Positions 1 to 38,613 of a DNA stretch of 52,968 nt are shown here, piece after piece (positions within the stretch are counted from its first letter, which is position 1; every line of letters begins with the position of its first letter). The DNA is from an uncultured Veillonellaceae bacterium (lineage in GTDB: Bacteria > Bacillota > Negativicutes > Selenomonadales > Selenomonadaceae), in the NCBI GenBank assembly GCA_902773295.1, contig CACYDT010000018.1, forward strand, positions 1-52,968, written 5' to 3'. The notes under the pieces were generated by a model that did not search any database, was not told the DNA's origin, and saw only the letters and a program-made list of their open reading frames with translations. Both the position numbers and the translations under genes were made by a program.

Positions 1-52
1 AGAGCGTGTAAGACGGAACGGCTACGGTCGTGCCGCAGTGCTCAGCGAACCA

Positions 53-86
53 AGAATCCCCTGGCTTTAGCCATGGGGAGTGTCAA
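53..86 (+). mobile_element. Right end of an IS200/IS605-type element (3' end of an omega-RNA-like sequence)
   Basis: A stem-loop (CCCCTGGC-TTTA-GCCATGGGG) followed by AGTGTCAA has the layout of the right end of IS200/IS605 elements, where the 3' part of the TnpB guide RNA (omega/reRNA) lies. An almost identical block occurs at 38513-38545. The differences in the stem are paired (GGC..GCC here, AGC..GCT there), so the fold rather than the sequence is kept. The scaffold would end at 86, and the bases that follow would act as guide in an active system. Any tnpB would lie to the left, outside the window. The seen parts are the hairpin and the second copy; the family assignment is from recall of IS605 ends. 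Confidence 0.6.
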
Positions 87-37250: not shown

Positions 37251-38333
37251 ATGACGGAGCAGAAGAAGGCGCCCCGGCTTTCTGCCTGCATTATCATGAG
37301 GGATGCGGCGGAGGACATTGCGGAGTGCCTGGAGAGCCTCGTGGGTCTGGTGGACGAGTTCATTGTCGTGGATACCGGATCCGTGGACGATTCCAGGGAG
37401 ATTGCGGCGAAGTATGCAGGGAAGGTCTATGAGTTCCCATGGAGGGATGACTTCTCCGCAGCGAAGAACTATGCCATCGAGCAGGCGACGGGGGACTGGA
37501 TTATCTTTCTGGACTCGGATGAGGCATTGACGGAGGACACGCGGAAGAATCTTCGTTCCGTCATCTCGCTGGCAGGTTCGCAGGAGACCGTGGATGCCCT
37601 TCTCGTCCACCGCTACAATGTCCGTTCGGATTCCAGGGAACCTGCCTATGATGAGGACGATTCGGAGCGCATCTTCCGGAGAGATCCGGCTCTGCGCTAT
37701 CATTACACCATCCATGAGTGCCTTCATTTCACGGATGGGCGCAGGCTGCAGGAAGCTTTTGTTTCGCCGCAGATTCTGGCAATCTGGCACACGGGCTATT
37801 CCCCGGAGCGCCTGGAGGCGAAGGCACGGCGCAATGTCAGGATGCTGGAGGAGTTCCGGGCCACGGGGAAGCCGAAGTCTTTTCTCTATTATTATCTTGC
37901 CACGGAATACGGGGACATGGGTGATTACGAAAAGATGGCGGAGTATGCGGAGATTTCCATCCGGCAGGGGGAAGCTCCGGGAGAGGATGCCTCCTTCCCC
38001 TATCGCCGCCTCTGCGAGGCCAGACAGCATCTGGGGGACGAGGAAGGAACGCTCCGCGCTCTGGAACAGGCCATGGGGAAGTTCCCGGGGCACCCGGAGT
38101 TCTTCGCCGCCTACGGGAAGCTCCTGGAGAAGAAAGGACAGCATGCGGAAGCCCTCGCCGCTCTGCAGCGGGCGGCGAAACATGCGAAGTCTTTCCGGGA
38201 CAGTTCATCGAAATGGAAGAACAGGCTGCCGGAGCTATACGAAGAAATGGCCGGCATCTGCTTCCGGATGGGCAATGCCCCAAGGGCGAAGTCTTTCCGG
38301 AAGAAAGCGGAGAAGGAGAGGCGTTCCACTTAG
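37251..38333 (+). CDS. GT2 glycosyltransferase with C-terminal TPR-like helices
   Basis: This 360-aa protein has an N-terminal GT2 domain: LSACIIMRDAAEDIAECLES, EFIVVDTGSVDDSREIA and the metal site IIFLDSDEAL near 87-96. It is followed by a helical region (~210-350) with TPR-like pairs (ALEQAMGKFPGHPEFFAAYGKLLEKKGQHAEALAAL.. is one unit, described here by its PGHPEF..AYGKLL and HAEALAAL landmarks). The architecture is common in Firmicute glycosyltransferases that act on surface polymers or proteins. It starts 7 bp after the large GT. The stop codon lies in the left arm of a palindrome at the edge of the IS605-like segment, so the C-terminus may have been altered by insertion. Confidence 0.87.
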   Translation: MTEQKKAPRLSACIIMRDAAEDIAECLESLVGLVDEFIVVDTGSVDDSREIAAKYAGKVYEFPWRDDFSAAKNYAIEQATGDWIIFLDSDEALTEDTRKNLRSVISLAGSQETVDALLVHRYNVRSDSREPAYDEDDSERIFRRDPALRYHYTIHECLHFTDGRRLQEAFVSPQILAIWHTGYSPERLEAKARRNVRMLEEFRATGKPKSFLYYYLATEYGDMGDYEKMAEYAEISIRQGEAPGEDASFPYRRLCEARQHLGDEEGTLRALEQAMGKFPGHPEFFAAYGKLLEKKGQHAEALAALQRAAKHAKSFRDSSSKWKNRLPELYEEMAGICFRMGNAPRAKSFRKKAEKERRST

Positions 38334-38357
38334 AAACTGCAGTTTCTGGACTAAGTG
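38327..38357. repeat. Palindrome at the left edge of the IS605-like segment
   Basis: CACTTAG and CTAAGTG are perfect inverted arms. Inside them is the exact palindrome AGAAACTGCAGTTTCT (38332-38347). IS200/IS605 elements carry a hairpin near each end, so this could be the left-end hairpin of a deletion derivative whose right end is at 38545. It could also act as a weak terminator of the upstream gene, although no T-tract follows. Confidence 0.5.
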
Positions 38358-38426
38358 AACTATGACGGGTAGAAAAGAAGTGCAAGAGAACCAACAAGTA
38401 AGCGGAAGTTCTAAAGGAACGACCGT

Positions 38427-38545
38427 GTAGAGGCAATTGGCACCGCCTTCGGAAATAAGGTTGCAAGCCAGCGAATAAGGACTGGCCCCTACAGAAACAA
38501 ACTTTCCGTAAAGAATCCCCTAGCTTTAGCTATGGGGAGTGTCAA
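38427..38545 (+). ncRNA. Omega-RNA-like right end of an IS200/IS605 element lacking tnpB
   Basis: A structured segment with no open frame ends in the same right-end hairpin as at 53-86, here CCCCTAGC-TTTA-GCTATGGGG followed by AGTGTCAA. A long-range stem GTAGAGGC (38427-38434)/GCCCCTAC (38485-38492) encloses a small hairpin GCCAG/CTGGC (38467-38486). A pseudoknot or tail segment (AAACTTTCCGTAAAG) links to the terminal hairpin. This is the order expected of a TnpB guide-RNA scaffold. The 5' end cannot be fixed, and related sequence may extend back to ~38358. Bases from 38546 on (CGGTACGGCAAGGAAG) would be the guide. No tnpA or tnpB is nearby, so an intact system would need a protein supplied in trans. 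Confidence 0.55.
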
Positions 38546-38613
38546 CGGTACGGCAAGGAAGAAGTATCATAACAGGCGAAGAAAGTTTTTCGAAAGAAAT
38601 TTTCAAGAATATC

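What the first reader, a model, noticed from the sequence alone, without database searches (positions are those of the whole stretch)
38327..38561. IS605-type omega-RNA-like element with no tnpB or tnpA
The 38.3-38.55 kb segment has a left palindrome, a structured non-coding body and the canonical right-end hairpin ending AGTGTCAA, but no transposase or nuclease gene. It could be a non-autonomous (PATE-like) element, or an orphan guide RNA exapted with a TnpB supplied elsewhere. The candidate guide, CGGTACGGCAAGGAAG, starts at 38546 and lies upstream of a very highly expressed-looking surface protein gene, so a regulatory use is conceivable.
Basis: partly seen in the sequence, partly recalled or inferred. 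Interest (0 to 1): 0.72.

Follow-up and report, generated by a model that had tools for sequence, protein, structure and literature searches.

The report
Truncated orphan TnpB guide-RNA element
The segment is a broken copy of a small gene-less jumping element whose RNA matches the guide RNA that TnpB-type transposons carry overlapping their nuclease gene; intact copies in gut and rumen bacteria of two phyla carry an extra, highly conserved RNA domain of unknown function.

Summary
(1) Window 38327-38545 is a repeated element but is 5'-truncated: the 'left palindrome' is an internal hairpin of a longer RNA. Full-length relatives (~400-450 bp) in Selenomonadaceae (Quinella) and Synergistaceae (Fretibacterium) run: left-end hairpin, sigma70-type promoter, ~330-400 nt structured non-coding RNA, IS200/IS605 right end. 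(2) The 3' domain (38396-38514) is the omega-RNA of one TnpB clade. A covariance model of it hits tnpB loci where it overlaps the last ~22-26 codons, including an independently annotated TnpB on a Butyrivibrio plasmid (87 bits, not in the training set), and ignores other TnpBs; 13 of 19 pairs show compensatory changes. tnpB-bearing relatives include plain elements and group I-intron IStrons. The 5' RNA domain (R2) is strongly conserved, was found only in ORF-less copies and matches nothing in Rfam. The cognate TnpB is in a sister species but was not found in this 88%-complete genome. The guide has no better match elsewhere in the genome than chance. The window copy lacks left end and promoter and is most likely an immobile relic. 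PATE-like is supported; exapted regulator is not.

The parts
38327..38545 (+). 5'-truncated copy of the ORF-less IS200/IS605-type element (about half of the ~430-450 bp of an intact one)
   Evidence: repeated copies with the same 3' end; upstream part shared by C120/C183 is missing here
   Evidence: model R2 matches 38321-38365 at model positions 26-70 only; covariation
38396..38514 (+). omega-RNA scaffold domain (model R1) of the MYLTQSN... TnpB clade
   Evidence: 89.4 bits, E 1e-15 (the window row is in the training set); independent: Butyrivibrio TnpB 87.1 bits, E 2e-16; covariation
38513..38545 (+). right end: guide tetranucleotide GAAT (38513-38516), hairpin (38517-38537), cleavage tetranucleotide TCAA (38542-38545)
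   Evidence: sequence; guide/cleavage covariation across relatives
38546..38561 (+). flanking DNA that would be the guide if the RNA is transcribed through the right end
   Evidence: position by analogy with ISDra2 reRNA (PMC8612924); no better second site than chance
37251..38333 (+). upstream gene (glycosyltransferase-like, by its start) whose stop codon TAG lies inside the element copy

Best explanation
The segment is a 5'-truncated copy of a non-autonomous (PATE/MITE-like) IS200/IS605 element. Its 3' ~120 nt is the omega-RNA of a TnpB clade with the alternative RuvC-II glutamate arrangement; its right end is a normal Y1-transposase (TnpA) end. Intact family members have no ORF. They would be transcribed from their own promoter just inside the left end into a ~330-400 nt RNA: a conserved 5' domain (R2), the omega-RNA, the right-end hairpin, and flanking DNA as guide. 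They would be moved by a TnpA and served by a TnpB, both acting in trans; TnpB would cut empty donor sites and so favour retention. Shown: homology to the tnpB-overlapping omega-RNA, compensatory base changes, right-end guide/cleavage covariation, multi-copy dispersal, truncation of this copy. Inferred: transcription, use of TnpA and TnpB in trans, guide function. The window copy has no left end, promoter or TAM of its own and is most likely an inert relic.
For: Repeated copies with identical 3' end and different 5' ends. Intact relatives with left-end hairpin and promoter, no ORF. Left end shared with tnpB elements. Model R1 hits that overlap the 3' end of tnpB in the sister species G002 and other Negativicutes and in an annotated Butyrivibrio TnpB outside the training set. 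R1 is specific: among 35 other loci, mostly with other TnpBs, only the cognate one and a cut fragment are hit. Compensatory changes: 13/19 pairs in the 3' domain, 6/19 in the hairpin domain, with controls. ORF-less copies that retain the tnpB start (own contig C171; L238/L255). Guide/cleavage covariation GAAT-TCAA, GAAC-TCAG, GAAG-TCAC (15/27 vs 6.5 expected, p = 2e-4). Four genomes (G346, G350, G354, G067) carry both the ORF-less form and the TnpB clade.
Against: No expression data. Neither the cognate TnpB nor a Y1 TnpA was found in the window's own genome, though it is a draft at 88%. The origin and role of the R2 domain are unexplained, and R2 was never seen directly in front of an intact tnpB. 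The guide/cleavage count is automatic and takes some wrong guides.
Confidence: 0.85

Rival explanations
1. Exapted orphan guide RNA: the host keeps this omega-RNA to target or regulate a gene, with a TnpB (or a nuclease-dead, TldR-like protein) supplied in trans.
For: The omega-RNA domain of the window copy is intact (89.4 bits) and lies in sense between two genes, so read-through transcription is possible. Other TnpBs exist in the genome.
Against: The guide has no second site better than chance in the genome. The copy is truncated and has no promoter. The cognate TnpB was not found. The copies are scattered, each with a different guide, and only weakly biased to sense orientation before genes (19/28).
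Confidence: 0.05
2. The R2-type RNA is a self-splicing intron (an IStron with an unrecognised ribozyme), so that insertions are spliced out of host transcripts.
For: tnpB-bearing relatives of the same omega-RNA family are group I IStrons. Some R2 copies end in TCAG, like group A IStrons (PMC4227781). One copy (L111/L171) sits within codon 4-5 of what reads as an acetolactate decarboxylase gene, and joining its flanks restores the frame (MKYY|QVSTLQAL, read by eye).
Against: No group I or group II match to R2-type elements even at lax thresholds. Intact copies have an internal promoter. Most copies are intergenic or antisense.
Confidence: 0.06
3. Chance resemblance or an ordinary hairpin-rich intergenic region.
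For: The single sequence does not fold better than shuffles.
Against: Multi-copy in the genome, comparative covariation, cross-phylum conservation with 38 pattern hits confined to Selenomonadaceae/Selenomonadales and Synergistaceae.
Confidence: 0.01

Closest known systems
TnpB omega-RNA / reRNA of IS200/IS605 (ISDra2; Karvelis et al. 2021, PMC8612924)
   Same: RNA from the right end, overlapping the 3' end of tnpB in the gene-bearing relatives, followed by flanking DNA in the guide position; insertion after a T-rich target, no target duplication expected
   Different: In this element there is no tnpB; the RNA is longer (~330-400 nt in intact copies) with an added 5' domain and its own promoter; no Rfam model matches it
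IStrons, group A (CdISt1, MspISt1, MfISt1; Tourasse et al. 2014, PMC4227781)
   Same: Relatives with the same omega-RNA in Quinella-type genomes have a group I intron in front of tnpB; T-rich target, TCAG ends in part of the family
   Different: The window family has R2 where the IStrons have the group I intron; no group I match; internal promoter
PATEs / MITEs of IS200/IS605 (named from general knowledge)
   Same: Gene-less, multi-copy, share ends with autonomous elements
   Different: Retains a conserved omega-RNA plus an extra conserved RNA domain, rather than only palindromic ends
Alternative-glutamate (Ealt) TnpBs (Yoon et al. 2023, PMC10711439)
   Same: In the cognate TnpB the canonical RuvC-II E position is replaced (invariant GYN) and invariant glutamates stand just before the zinc-finger position
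   Different: D-I/L/F-G in RuvC-I, not DPG, so not a pro-Fanzor; zinc-finger cysteines largely lost

Membership tests
TnpB omega-RNA (IS200/IS605) | Overlaps the 3' end of a tnpB gene in gene-bearing relatives | tested here: met
TnpB omega-RNA (IS200/IS605) | Conserved secondary structure supported by compensatory changes | tested here: met
TnpB omega-RNA (IS200/IS605) | Ends at the right end with variable flanking DNA in the guide position | tested here: met
   identical 3' ends with different flanks in all well-kept copies; guide use itself not tested
TnpB omega-RNA (IS200/IS605) | Binds TnpB and guides cleavage | not testable with these tools
   needs biochemistry
Non-autonomous IS200/IS605 element (PATE-like) | No transposase or nuclease gene | tested here: met
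Non-autonomous IS200/IS605 element (PATE-like) | Both ends shared with an autonomous family | tested here: met
   for intact relatives; the window copy itself lacks the left end
Non-autonomous IS200/IS605 element (PATE-like) | Right-end guide tetranucleotide covaries with the cleavage site | tested here: met
Non-autonomous IS200/IS605 element (PATE-like) | Y1 TnpA able to act in trans in the same genome | tested here: inconclusive
   none found in an 88%-complete draft
IStron | Group I intron at the 5' end | tested here: not met
   R2-type elements have no Intron_gpI match; the tnpB-bearing cousins L227/L230 do
HEARO / IscB omega-RNA | Rfam HEARO match; guide at the 5' end | tested here: not met
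   no match
Exapted orphan guide RNA (TldR-like) | Guide matching a distant site, with a TnpB-like protein available | tested here: not met
   (draft genome, so absence of the protein is not final)

The most novel reading that the evidence does not exclude
The intact ORF-less elements are a distinct lineage of promoter-bearing, gene-less omega-RNA parasites spread over two bacterial phyla, in which a new ~200-nt RNA domain (R2) takes the place of tnpB and performs a separate function, such as recruiting TnpA/TnpB in trans or a ribozyme activity.
Probability: 0.3. Interest if true: 0.75.

Novelty: new variant of a known kind. Interest (0 to 1): 0.5.

Why it matters
Guide-RNA-only transposons are the expected parasites of TnpB systems but are rarely described together with their cognate nuclease. 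Here one RNA family links ORF-less elements, tnpB elements and group I IStrons in the same bacterial class, with surviving tnpB start codons in some ORF-less copies. That makes it testable whether gene-less elements are retained by a TnpB acting in trans. The R2 domain is a structured RNA domain without an Rfam match, conserved between Selenomonadaceae and Synergistaceae.

Tried and rejected
Rfam at gathering and at lax thresholds on the window and on full relatives: no family for either domain. Single-sequence folding: uninformative. Ordinary TnpB omega-RNAs of the same genomes (e.g. the CCGTGGGACACACGGG...GTAAGAC type, also present as an ORF-less element at L047:1823-2025): a different RNA; R1 does not hit them. 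Group I intron hypothesis for R2: rejected on Rfam and context. An early reading as a retroposon, because of 5' truncation with exact 3' ends, was dropped once the left-end hairpin, the T-rich target and the guide/cleavage covariation were seen; 3'-truncated copies also exist in genus g11. Viral contigs and phages: no match. Orientation bias to downstream genes: weak. The intron-junction scan was too permissive to use statistically.

Full report
What the finding is. The window belongs to a draft Selenomonadaceae genome of 2.46 Mb in 192 contigs, 88% complete (the family is inferred because Selenomonadaceae records such as L139 carry the same sequence as same-family loci such as L130). The segment 38327-38545 recurs in the same genome at 97%, 97% and 92% identity and in more diverged pieces. 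The copies share the 3' end GGGGAGTGTCAA but start at different points. C120 and C183 share further sequence upstream of the window's start (GGAGGAGCACTCCCCCTTGCCGCAGCGTAGCA). So the palindrome 38327-38357 is internal and the window copy is 5'-truncated.

Full-length relatives. A DNA search of the family and a pattern scan of 84,980 genomes (38 hits, only Selenomonadaceae/Selenomonadales and Synergistaceae) gave intact relatives. They run from a left-end hairpin that follows TTATC-like targets (GCGGCGTAAAACCCCTAGCTTTAGCTATGGGGATATAAGCCGC), through a TTGACTTT-17-TAAAAT-like promoter, a hairpin AGCGGTTAGRCTTCCGCT, the CACTTAG...CTGAGTG domain and the 3' domain, to the right end. None has an ORF. 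The left end is shared with tnpB elements (L055).

Structure. For the 3' domain (25 sequences, 19 pairs), 97.2% of cells pair, 13 pairs have double changes, and the covariation score is 0.563 against 0.220 in shuffles (0/500) and at most 0.131 when slid. For the hairpin domain (20 sequences), 98.2% pair and 6 pairs have double changes. Mean column identity is 87% in the hairpin-domain alignment and 57% in the 3'-domain alignment; the first set was fetched partly with a pattern inside that domain, which raises its identity.

Identity of the 3' domain. Models R1 (3') and R2 (hairpin domain) were built. R1 finds 53 of 380 Negativicutes genomes. In several, including the sister species G002 and a single-contig genome G346, the hit covers the last codons of a ~420-aa TnpB and continues to the right end. 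An independent annotated case is Butyrivibrio plasmid pCY360: R1 hit 2502-2618, 87.1 bits, over a TnpB CDS that ends at 2577. Among 35 other loci, mostly with other TnpBs, R1 hits strongly only the cognate one. The 3' domain is therefore the omega-RNA of this clade. The protein is TnpB by NCBIfam (guided_TnpB 1.2e-52) and Pfam. Across ten members the RuvC-I D and RuvC-III D are invariant, the canonical RuvC-II glutamate site is an invariant GYN, and invariant glutamates stand just before a degenerate zinc finger. This is the alternative-glutamate arrangement described in PMC10711439; the assignment is by motif, not by structure.

Relation of the forms. tnpB-bearing relatives come with a short leader containing a tRNA T-arm-like hairpin (L240, L245, L251) or with a group I intron (L213, L227, L228, L230 by sequence; Rfam RF00028 for L230 at E 1.8e-7 and L227 at 2.2e-4 on cut-off stretches, below the gathering score), i.e. 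IStrons. ORF-less forms come with R2, or without it: own contig C171 has the left end, the tnpB start ATGTACTTAACG and the omega-RNA. In G346 the R2 forms keep AAAATGTGTATCTACTCAA, close to the tnpB start AAAATGTGTATCTTACTCAA, between R2 and the omega-RNA. This suggests that R2 once preceded a tnpB, although none of the 30 R2 loci fetched has one now.

Ends. The right ends show the guide/cleavage pairs expected of Y1 transposases: GAAT with TCAA, GAAC with TCAG, GAAG with TCAC. An automatic count gives 15 of 27 matches against 6.5 expected, p = 2e-4; some of its picks take a wrong guide, and related copies are not independent. TCAG ends and T-rich targets are also those of group A IStrons (PMC4227781).

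The window copy. It has the omega-RNA (89 bits) and the right end but no left end, no promoter of the family and no T-rich target at its left junction (GAGAGGCGTTC|CACTTAG). Its upstream gene takes its stop codon from the element. The guide CGGTACGGCAAGGAAG has no other match at 0-1 mismatch; 6 sites at up to 2 mismatches against 11 for the reversed control. The cognate TnpB and a Y1 TnpA were not found in the draft. The most likely state is an immobile relic; read-through transcription from the upstream gene could still make the RNA, but that is untested.

Unexplained. In the window's genus nearly all copies of the window type are cut at different 5' points with exact 3' ends. TnpB-induced breaks repaired incompletely from a sister copy would leave such footprints, but simple deletion is not excluded. 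The function of R2 is unknown.

Noticed in passing
G000 copies C91, C34, C77, C183 and G001 copies C189, C120, C72, C39: All window-type copies of this genus that could be read lack the 5' end at different points while nearly all keep the exact 3' end, with short microhomology at some left junctions; no 3'-truncated copy was seen in the genus.
   Followed up: partly
window 1-86, and the first ~50-130 bases of about ten other contigs of the same genome: A second, abundant IS605-type right end (AAGAATCCCCTGGCTTTAGCCATGGGGAGTGTCAA) with an ordinary TnpB omega-RNA starts many contigs, so the assembly breaks at this tnpB element; contig C16 holds the 3' end of its tnpB.
   Followed up: partly
L047:1823-2025: A ~200 bp ORF-less element carrying the ordinary TnpB omega-RNA (CCGTGGGGCACACGGG...) between its own left end, a promoter-like stretch and a right end: a second, independent omega-RNA-only element.
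   Followed up: no
L240, L245, L251, L237, L239 (leader between left end and tnpB): The tnpB leader holds a tRNA T-arm-like hairpin, e.g. GCGGGTTCGATGCCCGC, whose stem seems to covary between copies (GCAGGTTCGATGCCTGC).
   Followed up: no
L213, L227, L230, L288-L291: Group I-intron IStrons with this TnpB clade in Selenomonadaceae MAGs; in L288 joining the flanks seems to restore a phage-like tail gene frame (RRTY|QAMCN), read by eye.
   Followed up: partly
L240:2053-2099 (minus strand): Rfam DUF3800-XI RNA (61.7 bits, above its gathering score) near the tnpB of the sister species.
   Followed up: no
L306 (Helicobacter suis plasmid pHS_1), about 2501-2543: A 43-base match (91%) to the left end of the Synergistaceae element on Helicobacter suis plasmids, in a stretch without an annotated gene.
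   Followed up: no
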